From assembly GCF_032854445.1 (NCBI RefSeq), contig NC_088296.1, forward strand, positions 1,118,001-1,182,000: a DNA stretch of 64,000 nucleotides, read 5' to 3'. The position numbers and the translations under genes were made by a program. Below, piece by piece: positions 375 to 51,530 of the stretch (its first letter is position 1; every line of letters starts with the position of its first letter). Origin of the DNA: Liolophura sinensis. Taxonomy: Eukaryota; Mollusca; Polyplacophora; Chitonida; Chitonidae. Under the pieces are notes generated by a model that ran no database searches, was not told where the DNA came from, and was given only the letters and a program-made list of their open reading frames with translations.

Positions 375-470
375 GCTTTAGTGGCCAAGTGGTTTAAGGT
401 GCATGCCTTTCAGTCACACAAGATGAAGGTTCCATGAAGGTATTGGGTATGGAAATTCTCTTGATTCCAT
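375..470 (+). repeat. tRNA-like SINE head (possible)
   Basis: The string 'tagtggccaagtggtttaa' followed by 'ggtgcatgcctttcagtcac' resembles the A-box half of a tRNA(Ser/Leu)-derived SINE head. No complete cloverleaf or CCA-ready 3' end is visible, so a functional tRNA gene is not supported. Confidence 0.3.
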
Positions 471-484
471 TCATTTAATTGTTC

Positions 485-3300
485 TCAGGGTCCCAGTGGG
501 TGTTAGTGGCCCACAGTGCTATCATTCATTCCTTGTTCTCAGGATGACAGTGGCTGTTAGTGGTCCACATTGCTATCATGCATTCCTTGTTTTCAGGGTG
601 ACAGTGGCTGTTAGTGGTCCACAGGGCCATCATTCATTCATTGTTCTCAGGGTGCCAGTGGCTGTTAGTCGTCCACAGTGCAATCATTCATTCATTGTTC
701 TCAGGGTGCCAGTGGTTTGTTAGTAGTCCACAGTGCTATCATTCATTCATAGTTCTGAGGGTGCCAGTGGCTGTTAGTGGTCCCCAGTGCCATCATTCAT
801 TCATTGTTCTCAGGGTGCCAGTGGTTGTTAGTAGTCCACAGTGCCATCATTCATTCATTGCTCTGAGGGTGCCAGTGGCTGTTAGTGGTCCACAGTGCCA
901 TCATTCATTCCTTGTTCTCAGGGTGCCAGTGGTTGTTAGTAGTCCTCAGTGCTATCATTCATTCATTGTTCTGAGGGTGCCAGTGGCTGTTAGTGGTCCC
1001 CAGTGCCATCATTCATTCATTGTTCTGAGGGTGCCAGTGGCTGTTAGTGGTCCCCAGTGCCATCATTCATTCCTTGTTTTCCAGGGTGACAGTGGCTGTT
1101 AGTGGTCCACAGTGCTATCACCCATTAATTGTTCTGAGGGAGCCAGTGGCTGTTAGTGGTACCCAGTGCCATCATTCAATCATTGTTCTCAGTTTGCCAG
1201 TGGTTGTTAGTGGTCCATTTTGCCATCATTCATTCATTGTTCTCAGGGTGCCAGTGGCTGTTAGTGGTCCATAGTGCTATCATCCATTCATTTTTCTCAG
1301 GGTGCCAGTGGCTGTTAGTGGTCCACAGTGCCATCATTCATTCGTTGTTCTGAGGGTGCCAGTGGCTGTTAGTCGTCCACAGTGCCATCATTCATTCATT
1401 GTTCTGAGGGTGCCAGTGGCTGTTAGTGGTCCACAGTGCTATCACCCATTAATTGTTCTGAGGGAGCCAGTGGCTGTTAGTGGTACCCAGTGCCATCATT
1501 CATTCATTGTTCTCAGTTTGCCAGTGGTTGTTAGTGGTCCATTTTGCCATCATTCATTCATTGTTCTCAGGGTGCCAGTGGCTGTTAGTGGTCCATAGTG
1601 CTATCATCCATTCATTGTTCTCAGGGCGCCAGTGGCTGTTAGTGGTCCACAGTGCCATCATTCATTCATTGTTCTGAGGGTGAGAGTGGGCATTAGTGGC
1701 CCACAGTGCCATCATTCATTCATTGTTCTGAGGGTGCTAGTGGTTGTTAGTGGTCCACAGTGCTATCATTCATTCATTGTTCTCAGGGTGTCAGTGGTTG
1801 TTAGTGGTCCACAGTGCCATCATTCATTCCTTGTTCTGAGGGTGCCAGTGGCTGTTAGGGGTCCACGGTGCCATCATTCATTCATTGTTCTGAGGGTGCC
1901 AGTAGCTGTTAGTGGTCCACAGTGCTATCATTCATTCCTTGTCTCAGGGTGCCAGTGGCTGTTAGTGGTCCACAGTGGCATCATTCATTCATTGTTCTGA
2001 GGGTGCCAGTGGCTGTTAGTGGTCCACAGTGCCATCATTCATTTATTGTTCTGAGGGTGCCAGTGGTTGTTAGTAGTCCACAGTGCTATCATTCATTCAT
2101 TGTTCTGAGGGTGCCAGTGGTTGTTAGTGGTCACAGTGCCATCATTCCTTCCTTGTTCTGAGGGTGCCAGTGGCTGTTAGTGGTCCATAGTGCTATCATT
2201 CATATCATTGTTCTGAGGGTGCCAGTGGCTTTTAGTGGTCCACAGTGCCATCATTCATTCATTGTTCTCAGGGTGACAGTGGTTGTTAGTGGTCCACAGT
2301 GCCATCATTCCTTCCTTGTTCTGAGGGTGCCAGTGGCTGTTAGTGGTCCATAGTGCTATCATTCATTCATTGTTCTGAGGGTGCCAGTGGCTTTTAGTGG
2401 TCCACAGTGCCATCATTCATTCATGTTCTCAGGGTGACAGTGGCTGTTAGTGGTCCACAGTGCCATCATTCATTCATTGTTCTAAGGGTGCCAGTGGCTG
2501 TTAGTGGTCCACAGTGCCATCATTCATTCATTGTTCTGAGGGAGCCAGTGGCTGTTAGTGGTCCACAGTGCAATCATTCATTCATTGTTCTGAGGGTGCC
2601 AGTGGCTGTTAGTGGTCCACAGTGCTATCACCCATTAATTGTTCTGAGGGAGCCAGTGGCTGTTAGTGGTACCCAGTGCCATCATTCATTCATTGTTCTC
2701 AGTTTGCCAGTGGTTTGTTAGTGGTCCATTTTGCATCATTCATTCATTGTTCTCAGGGTGCCAGTGGCTGTTAGTGGTCCATAGTGCTATCATCCATTCA
2801 TTTTTCTTGCCATCATTCATTCATTGTTCTCAGTTTGCCAGTGGTTGTTAGTGGTCCATTTTGCCATCATTCATTCATTGTTCTCAGGGTGCCAGTGGCT
2901 GTTAGTGGTCCATAGTGCTATCATCCATTCATTTTTCTTAGGGTGCCAGTGGGCTGTTAGTGGTCCACAGTGCCATCATTCATTCATTGTTCTGAGGGTA
3001 AGAGTGGGCATTAGTGGCCCACAGTGCCATCATTCATTCATTGTTCTCAGGGTGCCAGTGGTTGTTAGTGGTCAACAGTGCTATCATTCATTCATTGTTC
3101 TGAGGGTAAGAGTGGGCATTAGTGGCCCACAGTGCCATCATTCATTCATTGTTCTCAGGGTGCCAGTGGTTGTTAGTGGTCCACAGTGCCATCATTCATT
3201 CATTGTTCTGAGGTAAGAGTGGGCATTAGTGGCCCACAGTGCCATCATTCATTCCTTGTTTTCAGGGTGCCAGTGGTTGTAGTGGTCCACAGTGTGATCT
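485..3300. repeat. 57-bp minisatellite, about 49 copies
   Basis: Tandem copies of a 57-bp unit centred on 'gtgccagtggctgttagtgg' and 'tccacagtgccatcattcat'. Copies differ by a few substitutions and small indels, and subfamilies alternate (for example 'gggagccagtggctgttagtggtacccag'-containing units recur about every 330 bp, and 'gtaagagtgggcattagtgg' units recur near the 3' end). The period is 19 codons, so several reading frames stay open for 60-160 codons; these are not genes. The array lies upstream of the first visible TTC23 exon, presumably within an intron. Confidence 0.95.
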
Positions 3301-3495: not shown

Positions 3496-3582
3496 TTACA
3501 AGGAGGGAAGTTTGGAACTGGCAGGACACGGCTCTTGCTGTCGCTAAGGCATACGCATCAACAGGCAAAGAGGAGGCAGAAG
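3496..3582 (+). CDS. TTC23: TTC23-like gene, internal exon (first visible)
   Basis: An 87-nt exon bounded by acceptor 'ggttactttgacag' and donor GAAG|gtgagc. The frame opens after two bases and gives 28 residues beginning TRREVWNWQDTALAVAKAYA and ending in GKEEAE; one G is left to complete the next codon. Joined to the exon at 5091, the split codon becomes Ala. The pattern matches the TPR helices of the C-terminal half of TTC23, where an alignable AAxxxAHIVAHAAVASG-type segment occurs in the vertebrate protein as I recall it. TTC23 is a ciliary protein of the Ellis-van Creveld zone involved in Hedgehog signalling; that role is family knowledge, not visible here. The acceptor is the least certain boundary. 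Earlier exons lie outside the window or were not recognised. Confidence 0.75.
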
Positions 3583-5090: not shown

Positions 5091-5218
5091 CCTCCGCGGA
5101 GAGTTACCTGATCGAATGCTTGGCTGTCTGCACCACAGGCTTTGGCCCTGGACATCCCAAGACTTTACAGGTGCAGGACGAGCTAGCCAGGCTGTATGGA
5201 CGGACGGACAGACAGGAG
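5091..5218 (+). CDS. TTC23: TTC23-like gene, internal exon
   Basis: A 128-nt exon after the pyrimidine-rich acceptor 'cttcccctcccgcag' and before a near-perfect donor GGAG|gtaagt. Two bases complete the codon begun in the previous exon; 42 codons follow, starting SAESYLIECLAVCTTGFGPG and ending ELARLYGRTDRQE, with phase 0 at the donor. The segment contains a TPR helix pair with the conserved 'FGPxHPKTL' turn between helices, which also appears in TTC23 relatives. The next exon continues directly with EALSIL, reproducing the 'QxxRAxSILR' motif of TTC23. Confidence 0.88.
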
Positions 5219-7550: not shown

Positions 7551-7700
7551 GAGGCGCTTTCAATTCTCCGCTCCACCTTACCCCACAAGTGTGAGGCGTT
7601 TGGGGATTACTCAGAGCAGGTGTCTGACACACACAAGCTGATGGCCTCTATCCACCTCTCCCAGGGAAACATTGAGCGTGCTCTCCGTTTTTACAAAAAG
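7551..7700 (+). CDS. TTC23: TTC23-like gene, TPR exon (parent of the exon array)
   Basis: A 150-nt, phase 0/0 exon: 50 codons between acceptor 'cctttccaacacag' and donor AAAG|gtgagt. It begins EALSILRSTLPHKCEAFGDY and continues with SEQVSDTHKL, IHLSQGNIERAL and RFYKK. The last 34 codons, from FGDYSEQ to YKK, are exactly one TPR motif: helix A with the L..IHL positions and helix B with GNIERALRFYKK. The best remembered match is the TTC23 segment 'SILRESLEAKVEAFGDFSPE' and the following 'VAETYRLLGG' and 'DLAQGN'. Its 3' part, with the donor, is the source of the tandem array that follows immediately. Confidence 0.93.
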
Positions 7701-10065
7701 GTGAGTCTGATTTGGGCATTATTCAGGTGTCTACATGTTGATCGCCTGTCTCCACCTCTCCCATGGGAACATTGAGCACGCCCTTCGTCTACAAAAAGGT
7801 GAGTCTGGTTTGGGGATCACTCAGATGTCTGACACACAAGCTGATCGTCTTTATCCACCTCTCCCAGGGGAACATTGAGCACGCCCTTCGTCTACAAAAA
7901 GGTGAGTATGGTTTGGGGATCACTCAAATGTCTGACACACAAGCTGATCGTCTTTATCCACCTCTCCCAGGGGAACATTGAGCACACCCTTCGTCTACAA
8001 AAACGTGAGTCTGATTTGGGGATCACTCAAATGTCTGACACACAAGCTGATTGTCTCTATCCACCTCTCCCAGGGAAACATTGAGCGTGCTCTCCGTTTT
8101 TACAAAAAGGTGAGTCTGATTTGGGGATTATTCAGGTGTCTACATGTTGATCGCCTGTCTCCACCTCTCCATGGGAACATTGGGCATGCTGTTGCTGTGT
8201 TTACAAGAAGGTGAGTCTGGCATTCTGATTACTCAAGTGTCTGACACACACCAGTTGATTGCCTCTTTCCACCTCTCCCAGGGGAACATTGAGCACACCC
8301 TTCCTCTACAAAAACATGAGTCTGATTAAGGGATCACTCAGTTGTCTGACACACAAGCTGATTGTCTCTATCCACCTCTCCCAGGGAAACATTGAGCGTG
8401 CTCTCCGTTTTTACAAAAAGGTGAGTCTGATTTGGGGATTATTCAGGTGTCTACATGTTGATCGCCTGTCTCCACCTCTCCATGGGAACATTGGGCATGC
8501 TGTTGCTGTGTTTACAAGAAGGTGAGTCTGGCATTCTGATTACTCAAGTGTCTGACACACACCAGTTGATTGCCTCTTTCCACCTCTCCCAGGGGAACAT
8601 TGAGCACACCCTTCGTCTACAAAAACGTGAGTCTGATTAAGGGATCACTCAGTTGTCTGACACACAAGCTGATTGTCTCTATCCACCTCTCCCATGGGAA
8701 TATTGAGCGTGGTTTGCGTGTGTACAAAAGGGTGAGTCTGATTAAGGGATCACTCAGATGTCTGACACACAAGCTGATTGTCCTCTATCCATCTCTACCA
8801 AATGGGAATATTGAGTGTGGCTTGCGTGTGTACAAAAGGTGAGTCTGGTTTGGGGGTTACTCAGGTGTCTGACACACAAGCTGATTGTCTCTATCCACCT
8901 CTCCCATGGGAATATTGAGCGTGGTTTGCGTGTGTACAAAAGGGTGAGTCTGATTAAGGGGATCACTCAGATGTCCTGACACACAAGCTGATTGTCTCTA
9001 TCCACCTCTCCCATGGGAATATTGAGCGTGGTTTGCGTGTGTACAAAAAGGTGGGTCTGGTTTGGGGATCACTCAGGTGTCACACACACAGGCTGATCGT
9101 TTCTATCCATCCTCACCCATGGGAATATTGAGCGGGTTTGCGTGTGTACAAAAGGGTGAGTCTGATTAGGATCACTCAGATGTCTGACACACAAGCTGAT
9201 TGTCTCTATCCACCTCTCCCATGGGGAATATTGAGCGTGGTTTGCGTGTGTACAAAGAGGTGAGTCTGGTTTGGGGATCACTCAGGTGTCACACACACAA
9301 GCTAATCATCTCTATCCACCTCACCCATGGGAATATTGAGCGTGGTTTGCGTGTGTACAAAAGGTGGGTCTGGTTTTGGGATCACTCAGGTGTCACACAC
9401 ACAAGCTAATCATCTCTACCACCTCTCCCATGAGAATATTGAGCGTGGTTTGCGTGTGTACAAAGAGGTGAGTCTGGTTTGGGGATCACTCAGGTGTCAC
9501 ACACACAAGCTGATCGTCTCTATCCACCTCACCCATGAGAATATTGAGCGTGGTTTGCGTGTGTAGAAAGAGGTGAGTCTGGTTTGGGGATCACTCAGGT
9601 GTCACACACACAAGCTAATCATCTCTATCCACCTCACCCATGAGAATATTGAGCGTGGTTTGCGTGTGTAGAAAGAGGTGAGTCTGGTTTGGGGATCACT
9701 CAGGTGTCACACACACACAGCTAATCATCTCTATCCACCTCTCCCATGAGAATATTGAGCGTGGTTTGCGTGTGTACAAAGAGGTGAGTCTGGTTTGGGG
9801 GTTACTCAGGTGTCACACACACAAGCTAATCATCTCTATCCACCTCTCCCATGAGAATATTGAGCGTGGTTTGCGTGTGTAGAAAGAGGTGAGTCTGGTT
9901 TGGGGATCACTCAGGTGTCACACACACAAGCTAATCATCTCTATCCACCTCTCCCATGAGAATATTGAGCGTGGTTTGCGTGTGTAGAAAGAGGTGAGTC
10001 TGGTTTGGGGATCACTCAGGTGTCACACACACAAGCTAATCATCTCTATCCACCTCTCCCATAGG
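7701..10065 (+). repeat. Tandem array of partial TPR exon + splice donor (~105-bp unit, about 22-23 copies)
   Basis: Each unit repeats the sequence from 'tttggggatcactcag' through the TPR coding segment (IHLSQGNIERALRFYKK or its variants, later HGNIERGLRVYKR) to 'aaaaaggtgagtctg'. The unit is therefore about 95 nt of exon followed by 9-10 nt of intron beginning with gtgagt. Most units retain the gtgagt donor. 5' units are close to the parent exon; 3' units share 'gagcgtggtttgcgtgtgta' and some carry an in-frame TAG ('gtgtgtagaaag'). A 311-bp three-unit block at 8040-8345 is duplicated at 8351-8656. The junction looks like unequal exchange between the exon's TTTGGGGATTACTCAG and a similar intron stretch. 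Confidence 0.92.
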
Positions 10066-10157
10066 GAGGAACCTGTATGAATGGAACAATGAATGAATGA
10101 TTGTGGTTTAATGCTACATCAGCAATATTTTAAGCCATGAATGGAAGAGCCTGTATG

Positions 10158-10645
10158 AAGAAAGAACCCTTTATATGCAGAACACAACAACATCCTATGC
10201 AGAACACAACAACATCCTATGCAGTACACAACAACATCCTATGCAGAACACTACAACATCCTAAGCAGAACACCACAACATCCTGTGCAGAACACAACAA
10301 TGTCTGATGCAGAACACAACCACATCCTATGTAGAACACAACTATATCCGATGCAGAACACAACAACATTCTAAGCAGACACCGAAACAGCCTATGCAGA
10401 ACAGAACAACATCCTATGCAGAACACCACAACATCCTATGCAGAACACAACACCACCTTAAGCAGAACACAACAACATCCTGTGTAGAACACAACTACAT
10501 CCGATGCAGAACACAACAACATTATATGCAGACACCGAGACAGCCTATGCAGAACAGAACAACATCCCAAGCAGAACACAACATCATCCTAAGCAGAACA
10601 CAACAACATCCTATGCAGAACACAACACCCGATGCAGAACACAGT
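10158..10645. repeat. 21-bp minisatellite, about 23 copies
   Basis: Imperfect copies of 'aacaacatcctatgcagaac' plus 'ac', with variants such as 'cctaagcagaac', 'ccgatgcagaac' and 'gacaccgaaacagc'. Located in the intron between TTC23-like exons at 7551 and 10745. Open frames across it are a consequence of the period divisible by three. Confidence 0.9.
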
Positions 10646-10744
10646 TTTCAGCTCTTTAGTAACATGCACTTCTTTTCATCTTCAAACTCTTCATTAGTCT
10701 TGTGAGGTAAAGTCAGCCAAAGTTAATCCACATATCTCTTGCAG

Positions 10745-10827
10745 TGTCACAATGTGGAGAGTTTGGTGTTGGGGACGAATCATAGGAAAACCAAAGACAC
10801 GCAGCGCACAATGGACATTTTGATGGC
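10745..10827 (+). CDS. TTC23: TTC23-like gene, penultimate exon
   Basis: An 83-nt exon after acceptor 'cacatatctcttgcag' and before donor TGGC|gtgagt. Twenty-seven codons read CHNVESLVLGTNHRKTKDTQ then RTMDILM, leaving GC to complete an Ala codon with the next exon. This reproduces the TTC23 arrangement in which the last TPR helix (KKCLQIQTLLYG-type) is followed by a 'KRTLATQQAMGML'-type helix. Phase 0 entry matches the phase 0 exit of the exon at 7551-7700. Confidence 0.9.
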
Positions 10828-11156: not shown

Positions 11157-11614
11157 GTGAAAACATTCCCCATAAGGTTGTCCTGAGTGCTGATTTCATG
11201 TTTGTTCTCCTTTTCACAAGTCCAAACATTTCCCACAAGTTTGTCCCGAGTGTTGACTTCATGTTCGTTCTCCTTTTCACAAGTCCAAACATTTGCCACA
11301 AGTTTGTCCCGAGTGTTGACTTCATGTTCGTTCTCCTTTTCACAAGTCCAACATTTCCCACAAGTTTGTCCTGAGTGTTGACATATGTTCTCTCTCTCAT
11401 TGTCCGTTTCAGAAGACCAAACATTTCCCAAAAGTTTGACTTCCATGTTGACATGTGTTCTCTCTCTCTCTCTGTTTCTGGAGCCCAAACATTTCCCACA
11501 AGTTTCACTTCTGTGTTGACAGATATTCTCTCTTGCGCTGTCTGTTTTAGGAGCCCAGACATATTTAACAAGTTTTGTGTGTTGACATATGTTATCTTTC
11601 TCTTCCTGTTTCAG
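11157..11614 (+). repeat. Tandem array of terminal-exon start + splice acceptor (~63-bp unit, 7 copies)
   Basis: Seven degenerate units each combine the first ~30 nt of the terminal exon ('cccaaacatttcccacaagt' + 'ttgtcc') with a linker 'gagtgttgacttcatgttc' and a pyrimidine tract ending in AG ('tctccttttcacaag', 'attgtccgtttcag', 'gctgtctgttttag', 'tcttcctgtttcag'). The last AG is the acceptor used for the exon at 11615. Several upstream AGs are plausible alternative acceptors. Confidence 0.9.
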
Positions 11615-11729
11615 AAGCCCAAACATTTCCCATAAGTTTGTGTTGTCCAAACAAGACGAGCTTGATAAACGGCCAAGATTCAACGCAGTTGTCAACAGAA
11701 GCAGTCCCGTGGTTGGAACAAAATCTTAA
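11615..11729 (+). CDS. TTC23: TTC23-like gene, terminal exon with stop
   Basis: Starts after 'tcttcctgtttcag'. One A completes Ala, then 37 residues follow: SPNISHKFVLSKQDELDKRP and RFNAVVNRSSPVVGTKS, then TAA at 11727-11729. A short, Lys/Ser-rich, non-TPR tail after the last helix is also how TTC23 ends. Total coding sequence visible in the window is about 187 codons, roughly the C-terminal 40% of a ~450-residue family member. The exon's first 30 nt are repeated upstream in the acceptor array. Confidence 0.88.
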
Positions 11730-14747: not shown

Positions 14748-14908
14748 TATTTATTTATTTTATTTGATTGGTGTTTTACACCGTACTCAAGAATATTTCA
14801 CTTATACGACGACGGCCATGATTATGGTAGGAAGAAACCGGGCAGAGCTCGGGGGAAACCCACGACCATCCACAGGCTGCTGCAAGACCTTCCTACTTAC
14901 CGTTGCAT
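14748..14908 (-). repeat. SINE copy, inverted
   Basis: Reads TTTATTTGATTGGTGTTTTA, 'gtactcaagaatatttcact', 'gaagaaaccgggcagagctc' and 'aacccacgaccatccacagg' on the + strand, the reverse complement of the SINE body. Truncated before the tRNA-like head. Confidence 0.85.
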
Positions 14909-14909
14909 G

Positions 14910-16440
14910 TATGGACAGCGAAACCAAACTACATACTTGAGCTTGACGCGATCTCCTTGACTAGCCTATACTGATTACTTACACGCCCCTATACATTTTC
15001 TGAATTCGCAATAGCGTTTTACCGCCACCAATGAAAACTGTTGACTACTCAATACTTTTTATTTTAAAAGAATTGATCCTATAATTTCTTACTCGGCTCT
15101 TCGAGGTTTGGATTGAACATTGTCTTGACAATTTTTGAAATGTCCTTTATGCATGGTTGAGAATTTGTACTTGAATATACACCAAGCATAGATTTGAAAG
15201 ACACATTCACATTGTTCAGGGTACTACGGGAGCTAGTAGATCAAACCTAAGAACGTTTTCATCGCTTTTCTTCAGAGACATGACCAATTTAATCATGACT
15301 CACCGAATTTTCAACATTCTCCTCCTCACCCTTTTCTCAAAACCTTGTTGGCAAGAACGTCTAGTGCGGAATCAGGTACAAGCTCATCTCGAGTTTTCTC
15401 TGACCCAGATACAACGTACTGTCGACGCCGTATCTAAGGATTTTTAAATCTGGCAGCTATCCCCTTCCCATCCTTTCCTCAAAACCATTCATCTTTTTTT
15501 AATTATCTTGTCAGCCGTAAGACATGGAGGACTCTGGAGTTTTTATGTGACACATTTTTTTTTAAGGTGAACCTCAATTTTATCGTCCTCCCCGTTCCCC
15601 TATGCGGTTTTCACTGCAACAAAAACTGGTTCAGGAATGTAGAATATCCTGACGGAATCCGGCAATTCCATCCCTTGAGATTTGGATCCGCTTTATCTGC
15701 TGACCACGTTTTGCTTAATTTACTTTTCTGTACTGTTCTCCATTTGTAGGTGGCACTAGGCCCATCTAGGCGGAAATAACCTTCGCTGACCTTTGTAGTC
15801 GTGATGACATCACTTCCGCTGTCCGGTGTTTCTGTATAGTATAGGTACATAACCCAACCAGGTGTTAATCCTGCACACACCACGGACACTCTAATCCGAT
15901 TATATCTTTGTAAGAACTTGTGAAGTTGCTCAGTTTCCCGGAATCTGAACACCCAGCTGGTAGGATTAACAGCAGATTGAATGATTTCCTTTTATTACGA
16001 CCGTTTCTGATCCAAGCTTTGCGCAGTAATTTTGTTTAACAGTATTTTAACAGCGAACTAGGTCGTGAAAGCCGACCACACGGATTTAATTTTCTATATA
16101 TATATTCCTATTGTAGTTTTTCTCAGGATGATGGCTAGGAGTTGGAAGCTTGTGCTACTAAGATATGTTCTAACAATATATGACCTGTATGATGTGCAGT
16201 ATGATAACATTAGGTGACGGACTTTCCCACTCACGACACACAGGTTTTCATTCCAAACCGGTAAAAAGTTAAACGGAAGAAAATAATATCTGATCAGTTA
16301 TTGGTATACTTTTACTGCTCATATAAACACATCGGTGCATGGTTTTTCAACTGCGCCATGTTTATACAGCCTCATGTCCCGGCGGAAGCGGAATTAGATA
16401 GATACTGCGGCGCATAGTGCCGGCGATCTTCGACGCTACA
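14910..16440. other. Unique AT-rich intergenic DNA
   Basis: No repeats or splice-consistent exons were recognised. A 113-codon minus-strand open frame at 15611-15952 has no family I recognise and no supporting signals, so it is not called. Confidence 0.5.
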
Positions 16441-24738: not shown

Positions 24739-24747
24739 TATAAAAGG
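24739..24747 (+). promoter_or_regulatory. TATAAAAGG motif inside the intron
   Basis: A consensus TATA box 118 nt upstream of the exon 2 acceptor. A transcript starting about 30 nt downstream would lack the exon 1 signal peptide, and the first in-frame ATG would be inside exon 2 near 24922. It may be chance or an alternative promoter. Confidence 0.3.
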
Positions 24748-24864
24748 AAAAATTTTTTTTTCATTTTTTGGCAAGAGTTATTTTTGGCATTACCCGTAGA
24801 ACCATAGTCTTCGTTTTAGCATATCTCTTCACGTGTCATATAACTTGCTTGCTTCTCTGCACAG

Positions 24865-26015
24865 TGATCTGCCTGCTGGTGACGGTCGAGACGTCCTCTT
24901 CCGAGAGCTGGGATGATGACGGGATGCACGAGTCCAGCGACGACACGCCTAGACCGTCCATGAGCAGCCGAGGGTCGAGGCGAGACGGCATGCACGGTCG
25001 CGACGGTATGCATCATGGCGACGACGGTATGCACCGAAGCGACGACGGCATGCATCATGGCGACGACGGAATGCACCGAAGCGACCGCGGCATGCACGGC
25101 CGCGATGACAGAATGCACGGCCGCCGCGGCAGCTCGCCGGACTACACGCCATGGTGGATCAGACGTCGCTCCTCGAGGCCTTTCCATCCGGGGATGTCCA
25201 GTCGCCCGTTCCATCCGTTCTTCCCTCGTTCTTGGGGCAGCTACCCGTCCATGCGTCGCTCATCTTCATTCCCCTGGGGCATGGGCTCGTGGGGCTCGCG
25301 TCGATCACCGTTCTTCCCTCATCACTCCGACAGCTCCCGCGAAGGCGGTTACTCTAGCCTCCTCAGCCTGCGAGCACCGGAGTCTCTAGACGACCAGGGT
25401 CGGAGGGACTCCCTCCTGAATTCTCGATCGGACTCTTCTTCCTGGGGCCGCGGATGGAGCGACAGAACCTGGGGAATCCCTTCTTGGCGCGACTCCTGGG
25501 GAATGGACTGGTCGTCGCGTGACCGCAGCTGGAATCGCCCGTTCTGGTGGGACGACTCAAACTTCTGGCGTGTCGGGACTCCCGGGTGGCGACGCTCCTC
25601 CGGCTGGCGCGACGACGACTCTTGGTCTCGCAGCCGTTCATTGTTCTTCCCGTGGCGGTCGTCGCGCGATCCTTGGAGCTCGGGTGGACGCTCCTGGAAC
25701 CGCTGGGACGATGACTTCGACGGCTTCTCTAGTCGCGAGAACGACGGTGATTCCGACGACTGGTGGTCCAGGTCAAGGTCCCGTGGGTGGGTCAGACCCA
25801 GCCCCTGGGGGAGATCTTGGGGATCTTCCTACCAGCATTACGACGACAGCGTCGAAGACCGGAACGCCTTTTACGATCCGTTCAGCTGGCTGTTCGGGCC
25901 TCAGCTAGTGAGCGGACCGGGTGTGAGCCCTCTCACGGCGCCCACTGTCACGCCTGTTACCCCGGGTCCTTCCCTTTCAAGCTCAGAGTCGCCCTCCATG
26001 GACGACCCCAAGTAA
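24865..26015 (+). CDS. Secreted Met-His/Trp-rich protein, exon 2 with stop
   Basis: 1151 nt from acceptor 'cttgcttctctgcacag' to TAA; with exon 1 the protein has 398 residues. After the signal peptide and an acidic Ser/Asp stretch, residues ~57-103 hold seven Met-His repeats of a G-M-H-(R/H)-(S/G)-D-D type, mostly exact heptads. Then come two RPFHP motifs, and from ~107 to ~370 a low-complexity body rich in Trp, Ser, Arg, Asp, Gly and Phe (WGSRRSPFF, SRDRSWNRPFWWDD, RSWNRWDDDFDG). The C-terminus is Pro/Thr/Ser-rich (PLTAPTVTPVTPGPSLSSSE). No cysteine remains in the mature protein by eye. The exon is much richer in G+C than its intron. Composition fits an extracellular matrix, shell-matrix or adhesive protein, and the Met-His cluster could bind metal; these are inferences, and no family is recognised. 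Confidence 0.82.
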
Positions 26016-27780: not shown

Positions 27781-27827
27781 CACGCACCTAGATGGCGAGT
27801 AATATCGACGTACTGACTGGTGTTTAA

Positions 27828-28100
27828 TTATTTATTTATTTATTTATTTGATTGGTGTTTTACGCCGTACTCAAGAATATTTCACTTATACGACGGCGGC
27901 CAGCATTATGGTGGGTGGAAACCGGGCACAGCCCGGGGGAAACCCACGACCATCCGCAGGTTGCTGGCAGACCTTCCCACTTACAGCCGGAGAGGAAGCC
28001 AGCATGAGCTGGGCTTGAACTCACAGCGACCGCATTGGTGAGAGGCTCCTGGGTCATTACGCTGCGCTAGCGCGCTAACCGACTGAGCCACGGAGGCCCC
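27828..28100 (-). repeat. Full-length tRNA-headed SINE, inverted
   Basis: Read on the minus strand: tRNA-like head 'ggggcctccgtggctcagtc' + 'ggttagcgcgctagcgcagc' (A box), then 'gtgagttcaagcccagctca' (B-box-like GTTCAAGCC), body 'ctgcggatggtcgtgggttt' and 'gccgccgtcgtataagtgaa', 3' end 'atattcttgagtacggcgta' and an (AAAT)n tail. This is the reference copy for the truncated elements elsewhere in the window. Confidence 0.92.
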
Positions 28101-30718: not shown

Positions 30719-30809
30719 CGGACTACTTCTAAATCATCATGGGTAACACGTACACTGTATGTGTATCATCACAGATTGGCCTACACCAAAGCCGAGCATG
30801 TTATTATGA

Positions 30810-33800
30810 AGACGATGAGAGCATAGGCAGGTACACGGGAATCTAACCACATACATGTCTGTATTTATTTACCTGGCTTAAATTTGTTACTGCACTCACT
30901 GTTATCTAAGACGATGAGAGCATAGGTAGGTACGCATGTGAATCTAAACACATATATGTCTGTATTTATTTACCTGGCTTATATTTGTTACTGCACTCAC
31001 TGTTATCCAAGACGATGAGAGCATAGGCAGGTACACGTGAACCTAACCACATACATGTCTGTATTTGTTTACCTGGCTTATATTTGTTATTGCACTCACT
31101 GTTATCTAAGACGATGAGAGCATAGGCAGGTACACGTGAACCTAACCACATACATGTCTGTATTTGTTTACCTGGCTTATATTTCTTACTGCACTCAATG
31201 TTATCTAAGATGATGAGAGCATAGGCAGGTACACGTGAATCTAACCACATACATGTCCGCATTTATTTACCTGGCTTATATTTCTTACTGCACTCAATGT
31301 TATCTAAGATGATGAGAGCATAGGTAGGTATGCATGTGAATCTAAACACATATATGTCTGTATTTATTTACCTGGCTTATATTTCTTACTGCACTCACTG
31401 TTATCTAAGATGATGAGAGCATAGGTAGGTACGCATGTGAATCTAATCACATATATGTCTGTATTTATTTACCTGGCTTATATTTCTTACTGCACTCACT
31501 GTTATCTAAGACGATGAGAGCATAGGTAGGTATGCATGTGAATCTAAACACATATATGTCTGTATTTATTTACCTGGCTTATATTTGTTACTGCACTCAC
31601 TGTTATCTAAGACGATGAGAGCATAGGTAGGTACGCACATGAATCTAACCACATACATGTCTGTATTTATTTACCTGGCTTATATTTGTTATTGCACTCA
31701 CTGTTATCTAAGATGATGAGAGCATAGGTAGGTACGCACATGAATCTAACCACATACATGTCTGTATTTATTTACCTGGCTTATATTTGTTACTGCACTC
31801 ACTGTTATCTAAGATGATGAGAGCATAGGCAGGTACACGTGAATCTAACCACATACATGTCTGTATTTATTTACCTGGCTTATATTTGTTACTGCACTCA
31901 CTGTTATCTAAGATGATGAGAGCATAGGTAGGTACGCACATGAATCTAAACACATATATGTCTGTATTTATTTACCTGGCTTATATTTGTTACTGCACTC
32001 AATGTTATCTAAGACGATGAGAGCATAGGTAGGTACGCACATGAACCTAACCACATACATGTCTGTATTTATTTACCTGGCTTATATTTGTTACTGCACT
32101 CACTGTTATCTAAGATGATGAGAGCATAGGTAGGTACGCACATGAATCTAACCACATACATGTCTGTATTTATTTACCTGGCTTATATTTGTTACTGCAC
32201 TCAATGTTATCTAAGATGATGAGAGCATAGGTAGGTACACATGAATCTAAACACATATATGTCTGTATTTATTTACCTGGCTTATATTTGTTACTGCACT
32301 CACTGTTATCTAAGACGATGAGAGCATAGGTAGGTACGCACATGAATCTAACCACATACATGTCTGTATTTATTTACCTGGCTTATATTTGTTACTGCAC
32401 TCAATGTTATCTAAGATGATGAGAGCATAGGTAGGTACGCACATGAATCTAACCACATACATGTCTGTATTTATTTACCTGGCTTATATTTGTTACTGCA
32501 CTCAATGTTATCTAAGATGATGAGAGCATAGGTAGGTACGCACATGAATCTAACCACATACATGTCTGCATTTATTTACCTGGCTTATATTTGTTATTGC
32601 ACTCACTGTTATCTAAGACGATGAGAGCATAGGTAGGTACGAACGTGAACCTAACCACATACATGTCTGTATTTATTTACCTGGCTTATATTTGTTACTG
32701 CACTCAATGTTATCTAAGATGATGAGAGCATAGGTAGGTACACATGAATCTAACCACATACATGTCTGTATTTATTTACCTGGCTTATATTTGTTACTGC
32801 ACTCACTGTTATCTAAGATGATGAGAGCATAGGTAGGTACGCACATGAATCTAACCACATACATGTCTGTATTTATTTACCTGGCTTATATTTGTTACTG
32901 CACTCACTGTTATCTAAGACGATGAGAGCATAGGTAGGTACGCACATGAATCTAACCACATACATGTCTGTATTTATTTACCTGGCTTATATTTGTTACT
33001 GCACTCACTGTTATCTAAGATGATGAGAGCATAGGCAGGTACACGTGAATCTAACCACATACGTGTCTGTATTTGTTTACCTGGCTTATATTTGTTACTG
33101 CACTCAATGTTATCTAAGATGATGAGAGCATAGGTAGGTACGCACATGAATCTAACCACATACATGTCTGTATTTATTTACCTGGCTTATATTTCTTACT
33201 GCACTCACTGTTATCTAAGACGATGAGAGCATAGGTAGGTACACGTGAATCTAACCACATACATGTCTGTATTTATTTACCTGGCTTATATTTGTTACTG
33301 CACTCACTGTTATCTAAGACGATGAGAGCATAGGTAGGTACGAACGTGAACCTAACCACATATATGTCTGTATTTATTTACCTGGCTTATATTTGTTACT
33401 TCACTCACTGTTATCTAAGACGATGAGAGCATAGGCAGGTACACGTGAATCTAACCACATATATGTCTGTATTTATTTACCTGGCTTATATTTGTTACTG
33501 CACTCACTGTTATCTAAGACGATGAGAGCATAGGTAGGTACACGTGAATCTAACCACATATATGTCTGTATTTATTTACCTGGCTTATATTTGTTACTGC
33601 ACTCACTGTTACCTAAGATGATGAGAGCATAGGTAGGTACACGTGAATCTAACCACATATATGTCTGTATTTATTTACCTGGCTTATATTTGTTACTGCA
33701 CTCACTGTTATCTAAGACGATGAGAGCATAGGCAGGTACACGTGAATCTAACCACATATATGTCTGTATTTATTTACCTGGCTTATATTTCTTACTGCAC

Positions 33801-36800
33801 TCACTGTTATCTAAGACGATGAGAGCATAGGCAGGTACACGTGAATCTAACCACATATATGTCTGTATTTATTTACCTGGCTTATATTTGTTACTGCACT
33901 CACTGTTATCTAAGACGATGAGAGCATAGGTAGGTACGCATGTGAATCTAATCACATATATGTCTGTATTTATTTACCTGGCTTATATTTCTTACTGCAC
34001 TCACTGTTATCTAAGATGATGAGAGCATAGGCAGGTACACGTGAATCTAATCACATACATGTCTGTATTTATTTACCTGGCTTATATTTGTTACTGCACT
34101 CACTGTTATCTAAGATGATGAGAGCATAGGTAGGTACGCATGTGAATCTAATCACATATATGTCTGTATTTATTTACCTGGCTTATATTTCTTACTGCAC
34201 TCACTGTTATCTAAGACGATGAGAGCATAGGCAGGTACACGTGAATCTAACCACATACATGTCTGTATTTATTTACCTGGCTTATATTTCTTACTGCACT
34301 CACTGTTATCTAAGATGATGAGAGCATAGGCAGGTACACGTGAATCTAACCACATATATGTCTGTATTTATTTACCTGGCTTATATTTGTTACTGCACTC
34401 AATGTTATCTAAGACGATGAGAGCATAGGCAGGTATGCATGTGAATCTAACCACATACATGTCTGTATTTATTTACCTGGCTTATATTTGTTACTGCACT
34501 CAATGTTATCTAAGACGATGAGAGCATAGGCAGGCACACGTGAATCTAACCACATACATGTCTGTATTTATTTACCTGGCTTATATTTGTTACTGCACTC
34601 AATGTTATCTAAGACGATGAGAGCATAGGCAGGTATGCATGTGAATCTAACCACATACATGTCTGTATTTATTTACCTGGCTTATATTTGTTACTGCACT
34701 CAATGTTATCTAAGACGATGAGAGCATAGGCAGGTATGCATGTGAATCTAACCACATACATGTCTGTATTTATTTACCTGGCTTATATTTGTTACTGCAC
34801 TCACTGTTATCTAAGACGATGAGAGCATAGGCAGGTACACGTGAATCTAACCACATACATGTCTGTATTTATTTACCTGGCTTATATTTCTTACTGCACT
34901 CAATGTTATCTAAGATGATGAGAGCATAGGTAGGTATGCATGTGAATCTAAACACATATATGTCTGTATTTATTTACCTGGCTTATATTTCTTACTGCAC
35001 TCACTGTTATCTAAGATGATGAGAGCATAGGTAGGTACGCATGTGAATCTAATCACATATATGTCTGTATTTATTTACCTGGCTTATATTTCTTACTGCA
35101 CTCACTGTTATCTAAGACGATGAGAGCATAGGTAGGTATGCATGTGAATCTAAACACATATATGTCTGTATTTATTTACCTGGCTTATATTTGTTACTGC
35201 ACTCACTGTTATCTAAGACGATGAGAGCATAGGTAGGTACGCACATGAATCTAACCACATACATGTCTGTATTTATTTACCTGGCTTATATTTGTTATTG
35301 CACTCACTGTTATCTAAGATGATGAGAGCATAGGTAGGTACGCACATGAATCTAACCACATACATGTCTGTATTTATTTACCTGGCTTATATTTGTTACT
35401 GCACTCACTGTTATCTAAGATGATGAGAGCATAGGCAGGTACACGTGAATCTAACCACATACATGTCTGTATTTATTTACCTGGCTTATATTTGTTACTG
35501 CACTCACTGTTATCTAAGATGATGAGAGCATAGGTAGGTACGCACATGAATCTAAACACATATATGTCTGTATTTATTTACCTGGCTTATATTTGTTACT
35601 GCACTCAATGTTATCTAAGACGATGAGAGCATAGGTAGGTACGCACATGAACCTAACCACATACATGTCTGTATTTATTTACCTGGCTTATATTTGTTAC
35701 TGCACTCACTGTTATCTAAGATGATGAGAGCATAGGTAGGTACGCACATGAATCTAACCACATACATGTCTGTATTTATTTACCTGGCTTATATTTGTTA
35801 CTGCACTCAATGTTATCTAAGATGATGAGAGCATAGGTAGGTACACATGAATCTAAACACATATATGTCTGTATTTATTTACCTGGCTTATATTTGTTAC
35901 TGCACTCACTGTTATCTAAGACGATGAGAGCATAGGTAGGTACGCACATGAATCTAACCACATACATGTCTGTATTTATTTACCTGGCTTATATTTGTTA
36001 CTGCACTCAATGTTATCTAAGATGATGAGAGCATAGGTAGGTACGCACATGAATCTAACCACATACATGTCTGTATTTATTTACCTGGCCTATATTTGTT
36101 ACTGCACTCAATGTTATCTAAGATGATGAGAGCATAGGTAGGTACGCACATGAATCTAACCACATACATGTCTGTATTTATTTACCTGGCTTATATTTGT
36201 TATTGCACTCACTGTTATCTAAGACGATGAGAGCATAGGTAGGTACGAACGTGAACCTAACCACATACATGTCTGTATTTATTTACCTGGCTTATATTTG
36301 TTACTGCACTCAATGTTATCTAAGATGATGAGAGCATAGGTAGGTACACATGAATCTAACCACATACATGTCTGTATTTATTTACCTGGCTTATATTTGT
36401 TACTGCACTCACTGTTATCTAAGATGATGAGAGCATAGGTAGGTACGCACATGAATCTAACCACATACATGTCTGTATTTATTTACCTGGCTTATATTTG
36501 TTACTGCACTCACTGTTATCTAAGACGATGAGAGCATAGGTAGGTACGCACATGAATCTAACCACATACATGTCTGTATTTATTTACCTGGCTTATATTT
36601 GTTACTGCACTCACTGTTATCTAAGATGATGAGAGCATAGGCAGGTACACGTGAATCTAACCACATACGTGTCTGTATTTGTTTACCTGGCTTATATTTG
36701 TTACTGCACTCAATGTTATCTAAGATGATGAGAGCATAGGTAGGTACGCACATGAATCTAACCACATACATGTCTGTATTTATTTACCTGGCTTATATTT

Positions 36801-39800
36801 CTTACTGCACTCACTGTTATCTAAGACGATGAGAGCATAGGTAGGTACACGTCAATCTAACCACATACATGTCTGTATTTATTTACCTGGCTTATATTTG
36901 TTACTGCACTCACTGTTATCTAAGACGATGAGAGCATAGGTAGGTACGAACGTGAACCTAACCACATATATGTCTGTATTTATTTACCTGGCTTATATTT
37001 GTTACTTCACTCACTGTTATCTAAGACGATGAGAGCATAGGCAGGTACACGTGAATCTAACCACATATATGTCTGTATTTATTTACCTGGCTTATATTTG
37101 TTACTGCACTCACTGTTATCTAAGACGATGAGAGCATAGGTAGGTACACGTGAATCTAACCACATATATGTCTGTATTTATTTACCTGGCTTATATTTGT
37201 TACTGCACTCACTGTTACCTAAGATGATGAGAGCATAGGTAGGTACACGTGAATCTAACCACATATATGTCTGTATTTATTTACCTGGCTTATATTTGTT
37301 ACTGCACTCACTGTTATCTAAGACGATGAGAGCATAGGCAGGTACACGTGAATCTAACCACATATATGTCTGTATTTATTTACCTGGCTTATATTTCTTA
37401 CTGCACTCACTGTTATCTAAGATGATGAGAGCATAGGCAGGTACACGTGAATCTAACCACATATATGTCTGTATTTATTTACCTGGCTTATATTTGTTAC
37501 TGCACTCACTGTTATCTAAGACGATGAGAGCATAGGTAGGTACGCATGTGAATCTAATCACATATATGTCTGTATTTATTTACCTGGCTTATATTTCTTA
37601 CTGCACTCACTGTTATCTAAGATGATGAGAGCATAGGCAGGTACACGTGAATCTAATCACATACATGTCTGTATTTATTTACCTGGCTTATATTTGTTAC
37701 TGCACTCACTGTTATCTAAGATGATGAGAGCATAGGTAGGTACGCATGTGAATCTAATCACATATATGTCTGTATTTATTTACCTGGCTTATATTTCTTA
37801 CTGCACTCACTGTTATCTAAGACGATGAGAGCATAGGCAGGTACACGTGAATCTAACCACATACATGTCTGTATTTATTTACCTGGCTTATATTTCTTAC
37901 TGCACTCACTGTTATCTAAGATGATGAGAGCATAGGCAGGTACACGTGAATCTAACCACATATATGTCTGTATTTATTTACCTGGCTTATATTTGTTACT
38001 GCACTCAATGTTATCTAAGACGATGAGAGCATAGGCAGGTATGCATGTGAATCTAACCACATACATGTCTGTATTTATTTACCTGGCTTATATTTGTTAC
38101 TGCACTCAATGTTATCTAAGACGATGAGAGCATAGGCAGGCACACGTGAATCTAACCACATACATGTCTGTATTTATTTACCTGGCTTATATTTGTTACT
38201 GCACTCAATGTTATCTAAGACGATGAGAGCATAGGCAGGTATGCATGTGAATCTAACCACATACATGTCTGTATTTATTTACCTGGCTTATATTTGTTAC
38301 TGCACTCAATGTTATCTAAGACGATGAGAGCATAGGCAGGTATGCATGTGAATCTAACCACATACATGTCTGTATTTATTTACCTGGCTTATATTTGTTA
38401 CTGCACTCACTGTTATCTAAGACGATGAGAGCATAGGTAGGTACGAACGTGAACCTAACCACATATATGTCTGTATTTATTTACCTGGCTTATATTTGTT
38501 ACTGCACTCACTGTTATCTAAGACGATGAGAGCATAGGCAGGTACACGTGAATCTAACCACATATATGTCTGTATTTATTTACCTGGCTTATATTTGTTA
38601 CTGCACTCAATGTTATCTAAGACGATGAGAGCATAGGCAGGTACACGTGAATCTAACCACATACATGTCTGTATTTATTTACCTGGCTTATATTTCTTAC
38701 TGCACTCACTGTTATCTAAGATGATGAGAGTATAGGCAGGTACACGTGAATCTAACCACATATATGTCTGTATTTATTTACCTGGCTTATATTTCTTACT
38801 GCACTCACTGTTATCTAAGATGATGAGAGTATAGGCAGGTACACGTGAACCTAACCACATACATGTCTGTATTTATTTACCTGGCTTATATTTGTTACTG
38901 CACTCACTGTTATCTAAGACGATGAGAGCATAGGCAGGTACACGTGAATCTAACCACATATATGTCTGTATTTATTTACCTGGCTTATATTTGTTACTGC
39001 ACTCACTGTTACCTAAGACGATGAGAGCATAGGTAGGTACACGTGAATCTAACCACATATATGTCTGTATTTATTTACCTGGCTTATATTTCTTACTGCA
39101 CTCAATGTTATCTAAGATGATGAGAGCATAGGCAGGTACACGTGAATCTAACCACATATATGTCTGTATTTATTTACCTGGCTTATATTTGTTACTGCAC
39201 TCACTGTTATCTAAGACGATGAGAGCATAGGCAGGTACGCATGTGAATCTAACCACATACATGTCTGTATTTATTTACCTGGCTTATATTTCTTACTGCA
39301 CTCAATGTTATCTAAGACGATGAGAGCATAGGTAGGTACACGTGAATCTAACCACATATATGTCTGTATTTATTTACCTGGCTTATATTTGTTATTGCAC
39401 TCACTGTTACCTAAGACGATGAGAGCATAGGTAGGTACACGTGAATCTAACCACATACATGTCTGTATTTATTTACCTGGCTTATATTTGTTACTGCACT
39501 CACTGTTATCTAAGATGATGAGAGCATAGGCAGGTACGCATGTGAATCTAACCACATACATGTCTGTATTTCTTTACCTGGCTTATATTTGTTACTGCAC
39601 TCACTGTTATCTAAGATGATGAGAGCATAGGCAGGTACACGTGAATCTAACCACATATATGTCTGTATTTATTTACCTGGCTTATATTTGTTACTGCACT
39701 CACTGTTATCTAAGATGATGAGAGCATAGGTAGGTACGCATGTGAATCTAACCACATACATGTCTGTATTTATTTACCTGGCTTATATTTCTTACTGCAC

Positions 39801-42288
39801 TCACTGTTATCTAAGACGATGAGAGCATAGGTAGGTACACGTGAATCTAATCACATACATGTCTGTATTTATTTACCTGGCTTATATTTGTTACTGCACT
39901 CAATGTTATCTAAGACGATGAGAGCATAGGTAGGTACGCATGTGAATCTAACCACATCCATGTCTGTATTTGTTTACCTGGCTTATATTTCTTACTGCAC
40001 TCAATGTTATCTAAGATGATGAGAGCATAGGCAGGTACACGTGAATCTAACCACATACATGTCTGTATTTATTTACCTGGCTTATATTTGTTATTGCACT
40101 CACTGTTACCTAAGACGATGAGAGCATAGGTAGGTACACGTGAATCTAACCACATACATGTCTGTATTTATTTACCTGGCTTATATTTCTTACTGCACTC
40201 AATGTTATCTAAGACGATGAGAGCATAGGTAGGTATGCATGTGAATCTAAACACATATATGTCTGTATTTATTTACCTGGCTTATATTTGTTACTGCACT
40301 CACTGTTATCTAAGATGATGAGAGCATAGGCAGGTACACGTGAACCTAACCACATACATGTCTGTATTTATTTACCTGGCTTATATTTGTTACTGCACTC
40401 ACTGTTACCTAAGACGATGAGAGCATAGGTAGGTACACGTGAATCTAACCACATATATGTCTGTATTTATTTACCTGGCTTATATTTGTTACTGCACTCA
40501 ATGTTATCTAAGACGATGAGAGCATAGGCAGGTACACGTGAATCTAACCACATACATGTCCGCATTTATTTACCTGGCTTATATTTGTTACTGCACTCAA
40601 TGTTATCTAAGACGATGAGAGCATAGGCAGGTACACGTGAATCTAACCACATACATGTCCGTATTTATTTACCTGGCTTATATTTGTTACTGCACTCAAT
40701 GTTATCTAAGACGATGAGAGCATAGGTAGGTACACGTGAACCTAACCACATACATGTCTGTATTTATTTACCTGGCTTATATTTGTTACTGCACTCAATG
40801 TTATCTAAGACGATGAGAGCATAGGCAGGTACACGTGAATCTAACCACATACATGTCCGTATTTATTTACCTGGCTTATATTTGTTACTGCACTCAATGT
40901 TATCTAAGACGATGAGAGCATAGGTAGGTACACGTGAACCTAACCACATACATGTCTGTATTTATTTACCTGGCTTATATTTGTTACTGCACTCACTGTT
41001 ATCTAAGACGATGAGAGCATAGGCAGGTACACGTGAATCTAACCACATATATGTCTGTATTTATTTACCTGGCTTATATTTGTTACTGCACTCACTGTTA
41101 TCTAAGACGATGAGAGCATAGGCAGGTACACGTGAATCTAACCACATATATGTCTGTATTTATTTACCTGGCTTATATTTGTTACTGCACTCAATGTTAT
41201 CTAAGACGATGAGAGCATAGGCAGGTACACGTGAATCTAACCACATACATGTCTGTATTTATTTACCTGGCTTATATTTGTTACTGCACTCACTGTTATC
41301 TAAGACGATGAGAGCATAGGCAGGTATGCATGTGAATCTAACCACATATATGTCTGTATTTATTTACCTGGCTTATATTTGTTACTGCACTCACTGTTAC
41401 CTAAGATGATGAGAGCATAGGCAGGTACACGTGAACCTAACCACATACATGTCTGTATTTATTTACCTGGCTTATATTTGTTACTGCACTCACTGTTACC
41501 TAAGACGATGAGAGCATAGGTAGGTACACGTGAATCTAACCACATATATGTCTGTATTTATTTACCTGGCTTATATTTGTTACTGCACTCAATGTTATCT
41601 AAGACGATGAGAGCATAGGTAGGTACACGTGAATCTAACCACATATATGTCTGTATTTATTTACCTGGCTTATATTTCTTACTGCACTCACTGTTATCTA
41701 AGACGATGAGAGCATAGGTAGGTACACGTGAATCTAAACACATATATGTCTGTATTTATTTACCTGGCTTATATTTGTTACTGCACTCACTGTTATCTAA
41801 GATGATGAGAGCATAGGTAGGTACACGTGAATCTAACCACATACATGTCCGTATTTATTTACCTGGCTTATATTTGTTACTGCACTCACTGTTATCTAAG
41901 ACGATGAGAGCATAGGTAGGTACACGTGAATCTAATCACATACATGTCTGTATTTATTTACCTGGCTTATATTTGTTACTGCACTCACTGTTATCTAAGA
42001 TGATGAGAGCATAGGTAGGTACGCGTGAATCTAATCACATACATGTCTGTATTTATTTACCTGGCTTAAATTTGTTACTGCACTCACTGTTATCTAAGAC
42101 GATGAGAGCATAGGTAGGTACACGTGAATCTAATCACATACATGTCTGTATTTCTTTACCTGGCTTATATTTGTTACTGCACTCAATGTTATCTAAGACG
42201 ATGAGAGCATAGGTAGGTACACATGAATCTAACCACATACATGTCTGTATTTCTTTACCTGGCTTATATTTGTTACTGCACTCGCTGC
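30810..42288. repeat. 11.5-kb satellite array, ~99/101-bp unit, about 115 copies
   Basis: Unit 'acgatgagagcataggtagg' + 'tacgcacatgaatctaacca' + 'catacatgtctgtatttatt' + 'tacctggcttatatttgtta' + 'ctgcactcactgttatctaa' + 'g'. Units differ mainly at a few diagnostic sites: gacg/gatg, caggtacacg / taggtacgcacat / taggtatgcatg, catacatg / catatatg, ttgttac / ttcttac, cactg / caatg. Variant order repeats over long distances, including a 3606-bp duplication. No coding role; short minus-strand frames recur only because units recur. Confidence 0.97.
31260..38442. repeat. 3.6-kb head-to-tail duplication inside the satellite
   Basis: 31260-34836 and 34866-38442 carry the same order of ~36 unit variants at a constant offset of 3606 bases. 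By eye only a few differences appear (for example gaatc/caatc near 33245 against 36850, gacg/gatg near 33812 against 37420, ggctt/ggcct near 32480 against 36087). Identity this high means a recent duplication. Confidence 0.88.
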
Positions 42289-50716: not shown

Positions 50717-50924
50717 CTGCGTGCTTTCTTCTCCCTCCTCTTGCGGACGCAGACGACAGCAAAGATAGCGATGAAAAGGATGGGGATGAGGACAGCCATG
50801 AGAACCAGTGTGAGGAACAGCGTCTCATCCTTCCCGCTTAGGTGGTGGAAAAAATCCTGCCCATCTGGCACAAACGGGGAAAGAGTGTGGTTATACACAA
50901 ATGTCTGGTTGGCAGTTGTGCTGG
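50717..50924 (-). CDS. N-glycan-rich membrane protein, transmembrane exon
   Basis: A 208-nt exon after 'ttgtatgatttcag'. Two bases complete a Thr codon, giving NDTSTT across the junction, then ANQTFVYNHTLSPFVPDGQD, a short stalk, and the membrane span TLFLTLVLMAVLIPILFIAI followed by FAVVCV. A strong basic stop-transfer signal follows (RKRREKKAR), fixing type I topology with the tail in the cytoplasm. Sequons NDT, NQT and NHT lie just outside the membrane. If the weak donor is not used, the frame ends a few codons later (RRSVL then TGA). I recognise no family; the architecture is that of a short mucin-like or adhesion-type single-pass protein. Confidence 0.78.
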
Positions 50925-51486: not shown

Positions 51487-51530
51487 CTACCTAAGGGAGG
51501 GTTCTGACAAGTTGGGAAATCTGCAATTGA

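What the first reader, a model, noticed from the sequence alone, without database searches (positions are those of the whole stretch)
7551..10065. A single TPR motif plus its splice donor has been amplified about 22 times inside the next intron of a TTC23-like gene
The last 34 codons of exon 7551-7700 (FGDYSEQ to YKK) are exactly one TPR, and the ~105-bp unit that follows is that coding segment plus 9-10 nt of intron starting gtgagt. The intron is thus a row of decoy exon ends, most keeping a consensus donor. It could compete for U1 snRNP, generate alternative 3' ends of the exon, or be a reservoir for adding TPR repeats. Later copies carry in-frame TAGs, so most are not under coding selection. 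I know of no description of this structure.
Basis: partly seen in the sequence, partly recalled or inferred. Interest (0 to 1): 0.78.

Follow-up and report, generated by a model that had tools for sequence, protein, structure and literature searches.

The report
Exon-end repeats filling neighbouring introns
In this animal gene the end of one coding exon, together with the signal that marks where splicing starts, is repeated 22 more times in a row in the next intron, and similar copying is seen at six other exon edges nearby, so the cell must pick the right splice signal among many look-alikes.

Summary
Exon 7551-7700 of a TPR gene (TTC23-like; name recalled) ends at donor 7701. Its last ~100 nt plus 10 nt of intron recur 22 times to about 10064, 78% of the intron. 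GT survives in 21 of 22 copies; 19 score as strong donors.

Corrections: the unit is not exactly one TPR; every copy carries a 5-nt deletion; the kind is already described: human ABCA7 intron 18 has a 25-bp VNTR that includes the exon-18 donor (PMC5954066, passages).

It is not alone. The same gene has a mirror-image array (acceptor plus start of the last exon, 11161-11640), and in 264 kb of this genome I found seven such junction arrays in four genes, including 88 copies of one exon end plus donor in a SKIC8/WDR61 gene.

Best explanation: minisatellite amplification seeded across exon-intron junctions, tolerated because the exon-facing site is still used. The donor is no better conserved than the rest of the unit, so I find no sign of selected decoy function. 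No RNA was available. A 40-kb control stretch gave 0 of 6 arrays, so genome-wide generality is unproven.

The parts
7551..7700 (+). Parent coding exon (phase 0/0, 50 codons) of a TTC23-like TPR gene
   Evidence: Continuous five-exon frame and splice-site scores; Pfam TPR_12 E 4.4e-10 for exons 3+4
7599..7710 (+). Segment that became the unit: last 102 nt of the exon plus about 10 nt of intron
   Evidence: Alignment A1; BLASTN starts at 7598-7599
7701..7706 (+). Real donor AAG|GTGAGT, 12.3 bits of a possible 12.6
7665..7700 (+). Cryptic acceptor inside the exon (CTCTCCCAG|GG, 8.4 bits) and the 36 nt after it; copied into the array
7701..10064 (+). Donor-junction array: 22 units of 98-107 nt plus a partial unit
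8055..8125 (+). Exact 71-nt copy of the exon-intron junction (end of unit 4, start of unit 5)
8366..8436 (+). Second exact 71-nt junction copy (unit 7/8), made by the 311-bp block duplication 8110-8420 to 8421-8731
8074..8109 (+). Potential 36-nt micro-exon, in frame (GNIERALRFYKK), acceptor 8.4 bits and consensus donor; same again at 8385-8420
3496..3582 (+). Coding exon of the same gene
5091..5218 (+). Coding exon of the same gene
10745..10827 (+). Next coding exon of the same gene
11615..11729 (+). Last coding exon with stop codon
11161..11640 (+). Acceptor-junction array: 63-70-bp copies of intron end plus first ~25 nt of the last exon, upstream of the real acceptor at 11614
   Evidence: BLASTN of the exon with 60 nt upstream: 6 places, E down to 6e-17; alignment A2; AG kept at the homologous place in 2 of 6

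Best explanation
The array is a minisatellite that began as a tandem duplication spanning an exon-intron junction and then grew on the intron side by slippage or unequal exchange. Because the unit contains the real donor, each round adds another near-perfect donor. The mRNA is expected to be unchanged because the spliceosome pairs acceptor 7550 with the nearest donor (7701), so extra copies fall into the intron; this step is inferred. Exon sequence was exported at least twice: once as the founder (all copies share the 5-nt deletion) and once later as the exact 71-nt junction copy in units 4 and 7. The same process acted at the acceptor of the last exon and at junctions of three other genes nearby. 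Rare use of decoys would mostly give transcripts with premature stops. Shown: anatomy, homology, history of copies, recurrence in 264 kb. Inferred: splicing outcome, near-neutrality.
For: Homology of units to the exon across the junction. Shared deletion and later 71-nt export plus 311-bp block duplication. Donor no more conserved than the rest of the unit, no codon-position pattern. Read-through stops at 7773. Mirror-image acceptor array. Six further junction arrays counting that one: SKIC8/WDR61 exon ending SIAY, 88 copies, 80 with GT; SKIC8 exon ending HTLE, 21 of 21 GT; CTDSP-like exon, 6 of 8 GT; NHP2-like acceptor, 0 of 16 AG; SKIC8 exon starting SSDK, four decoy acceptors at 8.6-8.8 bits against 8.8 for the real one. 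The region is rich in minisatellites: 99 arrays cover 31% of 264 kb.
Against: No RNA, so silence of the decoys is not shown. Preference for junctions as seeds is weak: consensus donors of at least 9 bits in 7 of 99 units against 3.0 (sd 1.6) expected, but at 10 bits 2 against 1.5 and for acceptors at 8 bits 11 against 10.8; the exon-edge filter passes 17 against 8.5 (sd 3.4) for random edges. In a separate 40-kb stretch 0 of 6 arrays passed that filter. GT kept in 21 of 22 copies could also fit selection on the donor.
Confidence: 0.78

Rival explanations
1. Selected decoy array: the row of strong donors is kept because it tunes the gene, by sequestering U1, by decay-linked alternative donor use, or by slowing removal of the intron.
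For: 19 of 22 copies score at least 9 bits. In human ABCA7 a donor-containing VNTR changes splicing with its length, including retention of one unit (PMC5954066, passages).
Against: Donor hexamer not exceptional in conservation (24 of 100 windows as low or lower). One copy lost GT and two lost the G before it. Same-kind arrays sit in unrelated genes, and in the NHP2-like gene all 16 copies have lost the AG, which fits tolerance better than use.
Confidence: 0.12
2. Exon or domain reservoir: copies are raw material for new TPR coding sequence, by micro-exon use of units.
For: Units 4 and 7 form a 36-nt in-frame candidate micro-exon with acceptor 8.4 bits and a consensus donor; adding it keeps the whole frame open.
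Against: The added peptide is 12 residues, not a TPR. The other acceptor-bearing units at the same place (7868, 7971, 8282, 8593) give 34-nt pieces out of frame. Shifted frame in all units.
Confidence: 0.06
3. Assembly artefact or collapsed/expanded repeat.
For: Tandem arrays are error-prone in assembly (general knowledge).
Against: Units 70-98% identical between neighbours, only one identical pair of 22; ordered subfamilies; C2 is a 28.4-Mb contig. Exact copy number could still be off.
Confidence: 0.02
4. Reverse origin: an older intronic satellite supplied the end of the exon.
For: Exact 71-nt identity of exon end with units 4 and 7 has no direction by itself.
Against: The exon is in frame and fits TPR profiles, and carries the 5 nt that all copies lack. 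A non-coding array would not have kept a coding TPR end.
Confidence: 0.02

Closest known systems
ABCA7 intron 18 VNTR in human (PMC5954066; passages seen)
   Same: Tandem array immediately after an exon, including that exon's donor, so every unit starts with a donor-like GT; about 24 units in the reference; a cryptic acceptor lies in the exon.
   Different: Unit 25 bp, described as intronic, against 105 bp that is mostly coding exon here. No matching acceptor array is mentioned in the passages seen. Here no splicing data.
[quoted passage not shown] title only, seen in reference lists; that it is the 6-16/G1P3/IFI6 gene is from the citing paper's topic and recall)
   Same: Repeat units each carry a donor.
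   Different: Paper not held, so details were not compared.
Internal tandem repeats at exon-intron boundaries of human duplicated genes (De Grassi and Ciccarelli 2009, PMC2812944; passages)
   Same: Minisatellites at exon-intron boundaries that can change splicing.
   Different: Average 30-bp units, 4 copies; treated as making new introns from exonic repeats, whereas here exon copies fill an existing intron.
Tandem dual-specific splice sites of polyubiquitin UBC (PMC10809524; abstract and one section)
   Same: Tandem units delimited by AG|GT sites.
   Different: UBC units are coding and in frame and sites act both ways. Here the junctions score -11.4 to 2.6 bits as acceptors, so dual use is not predicted.

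Membership tests
Donor-containing VNTR (ABCA7 intron 18 type) | Array adjoins an exon and includes its donor | tested here: met
Donor-containing VNTR (ABCA7 intron 18 type) | Most units keep a usable donor | tested here: met
   21 of 22 GT, 19 of 22 at least 9 bits (predicted strength only)
Donor-containing VNTR (ABCA7 intron 18 type) | Copy number varies among individuals | not testable with these tools
   One assembly only
Donor-containing VNTR (ABCA7 intron 18 type) | Array length changes splicing | not testable with these tools
   No RNA data
Tandem dual-specific splice sites (UBC type) | AG|GT junctions work as both donor and acceptor | tested here: not met
   Acceptor scores at 23 junctions -11.4 to 2.6; background 95th percentile 6.0 (prediction only)
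Tandem dual-specific splice sites (UBC type) | Units in frame and coding | tested here: not met
   5-nt deletion in all units; stop at 7773
Tandem exon duplication (whole exons with their introns) | Unit contains a whole exon with acceptor and donor | tested here: not met
   Unit starts inside the exon at 7599, without the exon's own acceptor
TTC23 gene family | Similarity to TTC23 proteins along the length | tested here: inconclusive
   TPR_12 E 1.6e-16; the TTC23 name rests on a recalled human sequence, not on a database hit

The most novel reading that the evidence does not exclude
In this genome exon edges are a recurrent seed for minisatellites, so that introns of conserved genes grow by piling up copies of their own splice junctions, tens per intron (up to 88), on both the donor and the acceptor side. 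That would make the species a natural experiment on how the spliceosome picks one site among identical ones, with coding exon ends taking part in copying exchange with intronic arrays.
Probability: 0.5. Interest if true: 0.78.

Novelty: new variant of a known kind. Interest (0 to 1): 0.6.

Why it matters
A donor repeated in an intron is known from single human cases. Here large units made mostly of coding exon, arrays of both polarities in one gene, and seven junction arrays in four conserved genes within 264 kb suggest a repeatable route by which introns lengthen without changing the protein. Since several decoys match the real site base for base (for example AAG|GTGAGT at 7799, 7902, 8110, 8211, 8421, 8522 and 8839), splice-site strength alone cannot explain the choice; position must. 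One long-read RNA dataset would test proximity rules at many such introns at once.

Tried and rejected
Rejected: TPR reservoir; dual-specific splice sites; conserved donor as a sign of selection; assembly error. A first idea that donor copies persist while acceptor copies are disarmed (0 of 16 and 2 of 6 AG kept) was dropped when the SKIC8 acceptor array showed four intact decoys. The 55-bp array in another SKIC8 intron (L010/L011) passed the filter but shows no exon similarity by eye and is not counted. Thus of the 17 groups passing I count five as junction arrays (TTC23 donor, two SKIC8 donors, CTDSP-like, NHP2-like); the TTC23 acceptor was known and the SKIC8 acceptor came from tblastn. Of the other 12 groups, four sequences (one of them not) plus one from the list were scanned with Pfam and gave no family (proteins 6-10); the rest were not scanned. 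A U1/polyadenylation idea was only glanced at: no AATAAA or ATTAAA in intron 7701-10744, which decides nothing. A viral-contig scan with the gene's protein found no relative; orthologues from other animals were not available. Telescoped null for seeds: expected 0.0152 arrays per junction, about 20 junctions of TTC23 and SKIC8 not used to find the genes (counted by hand), expected 0.30, seen 3, of which 2 are in the list the expectation uses (P of 2 or more 0.038). The genes were found through their arrays, so this remains biased.

Full report
What is there. The window lies in a 609-Mb assembly of 632 contigs, at C2:1118001-1182000. On the + strand five exons join into one open frame of 186 residues ending in a stop codon: 3496-3582, 5091-5218, 7551-7700, 10745-10827, 11615-11729. 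Pfam gives TPR families (TPR_12 E 1.6e-16). The name TTC23 rests on my recall of the human protein; no search here returned it.

The array. Exon 7551-7700 ends AAG|GTGAGT at 7701. From there 22 units of 98-107 nt, each starting at a donor-like site, run to 9993, with a partial unit to about 10064. Each unit is intron start (about 10 nt) plus a copy of the last ~102 nt of the exon, less small deletions. Of the 22 downstream donors, 21 keep GT; 19 score 9 bits or more, and the seven with AAG|GTGAGT equal the real one (read with recalled human-like frequencies). An ungapped search reads GT in 19 of 22 because indels shift it.

History. All 23 units, the partial one included, lack the same 5 nt of the exon, pointing to one founder. 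Units 4 and 7 match the exon junction exactly over 71 nt, and beyond it the first intronic unit at 55 of 56 positions, while overall most units are 79-86% identical to the exon. So the junction was exported a second time, and a 311-bp block was then duplicated (300 of 311 identical). The distal units (17-22) are the most alike (93-98% between neighbours), so growth is most recent away from the exon.

Selection. On a tree of units the donor hexamer has 3 substitutions; 24 of 100 six-column windows have as few or fewer. Substitutions by parent codon position are 35, 24 and 33. Neither suggests selection on donor or coding. Read-through from the exon hits a stop at 7773, so longer exons ending at any decoy carry a premature stop. 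Acceptor-like sites copied from inside the exon (CTCTCCCAG|GG at 7665) make small candidate exons; units 4 and 7 give 36 nt in frame, four others 34 nt out of frame.

The mirror image. The array 11161-11640 upstream of the last exon consists of 63-70-bp copies of the intron end plus the first ~25 nt of that exon. BLASTN with the exon and 60 nt upstream finds 6 places, E down to 6e-17. AG is at the homologous place in 2 of 6 copies, and the real acceptor scores best of its set (10.9 against at most 7.6 for homologous copies). Each of the seven alternative acceptors tested gives a different, shorter-lived C-terminus with an early stop.

It recurs nearby. In the contiguous 264 kb C2:918001-1182000, 99 arrays (unit at least 20 bp, at least 3 copies) cover 31%. 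Besides the two above, I found: SKIC8/WDR61 (best PDB match 9eh1_W, E 1.4e-59), minus strand: exon L011 8219-8367 followed by 88 copies of a 46-bp unit holding the exon end and donor, 80 with GT; exon L011 3877-3970 followed by 21 copies of a 64-bp unit, 21 with GT; and exon L012 4437-4515 preceded by four copies of acceptor plus exon start, spaced 135-213 bp, scoring 8.6-8.8 against 8.8. A CTD-phosphatase-like exon (Pfam NIF E 4.2e-14, PDB 2hhl E 7.9e-12), L013 3737-3863, has 8 downstream junction copies, 6 with GT. An NHP2-like exon (Pfam Ribosomal_L7Ae E 1.7e-8; best PDB matches are H/ACA subunit 2), L017 1893-1998, is preceded by 16 copies of a 70-bp unit in which AG is AC each time; similarity there is weaker (mean 7.2 mismatches of 28). 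The anchor threshold also gives 29-204 matches elsewhere per strand of 264 kb, so single copies are not significant on their own; the regular tandem spacing is what carries the evidence. Seven junction arrays, four genes; six are in the list of 99.

How strong is the recurrence. Random seeding predicts 0.0152 arrays per junction; for about 20 junctions not used to find the genes 0.30 are expected and 3 seen, 2 of them in the list used (P 0.038). The exon-edge filter passes 17 against 8.5 (sd 3.4) at random edges. Consensus donors of 9 bits: 7 of 99 against 3.0 (sd 1.6), but no excess at 10 bits (2 against 1.5) nor for acceptors (11 against 10.8). A 40-kb stretch elsewhere on C2 has 6 arrays covering 37% and none passed. 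I therefore claim recurrence in this region, not a proven preference or a genome-wide rule.

Mechanism. Most likely a duplication across a junction, then slippage or unequal exchange on the intron side. Duplicates are harmless as long as the exon-facing site is used, so they can accumulate (inferred from exon definition and proximity of splice sites, general knowledge). Decoy use would give mostly early stops.

Known context. ABCA7 intron 18 carries a 25-bp VNTR that includes the exon-18 donor, with a cryptic exon acceptor, retention of one unit and exon 19 skipping (PMC5954066, passages). Minisatellites at exon-intron boundaries altering splicing are reported for human duplicated genes (PMC2812944, passages). 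UBC has tandem dual-specific sites (PMC10809524, abstract and section). Turri 1995 and Zhuo 2007 were seen as titles in reference lists only. My ten counted literature searches showed no account of arrays of both polarities in one gene or of many junction arrays in one region; I read listings and passages only, and the library is open-licence papers.

Noticed in passing
30809-42291: An 11.5-kb array of a 99-bp unit, about 115 copies, 95% matches; no gene connection examined.
   Followed up: no
468-3294: 54-bp array (17 copies of a 162-bp higher unit) in the intron upstream of exon 3496 with 22 acceptor-like sites of at least 8 bits; no similarity to the exons tested.
   Followed up: partly
24744-26015: Open frame of 423 codons rich in D, G, M, H, R, S and W with an internal 21/42-bp coding repeat; only a weak Pfam match (GRP E 0.0097).
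   Followed up: partly
50704-50967 (- strand): Open frame with a membrane-spanning stretch, weak match to dystroglycan DAG1 (E 0.0027, below the Pfam cut-off).
   Followed up: partly
14750-14960, 27817-28041, 51500-51750; also L031/L032 region of C2:14.0 Mb: A dispersed element whose frames read like FDWCFTPYSRIFHLYDGG...GKPTTIRRLL; several copies in the window and one in the 40-kb control.
   Followed up: no
L011 4153-8217: 88-copy 46-bp array, 4.1 kb, of exon end plus donor in a SKIC8/WDR61 intron: the largest junction array seen.
   Followed up: yes
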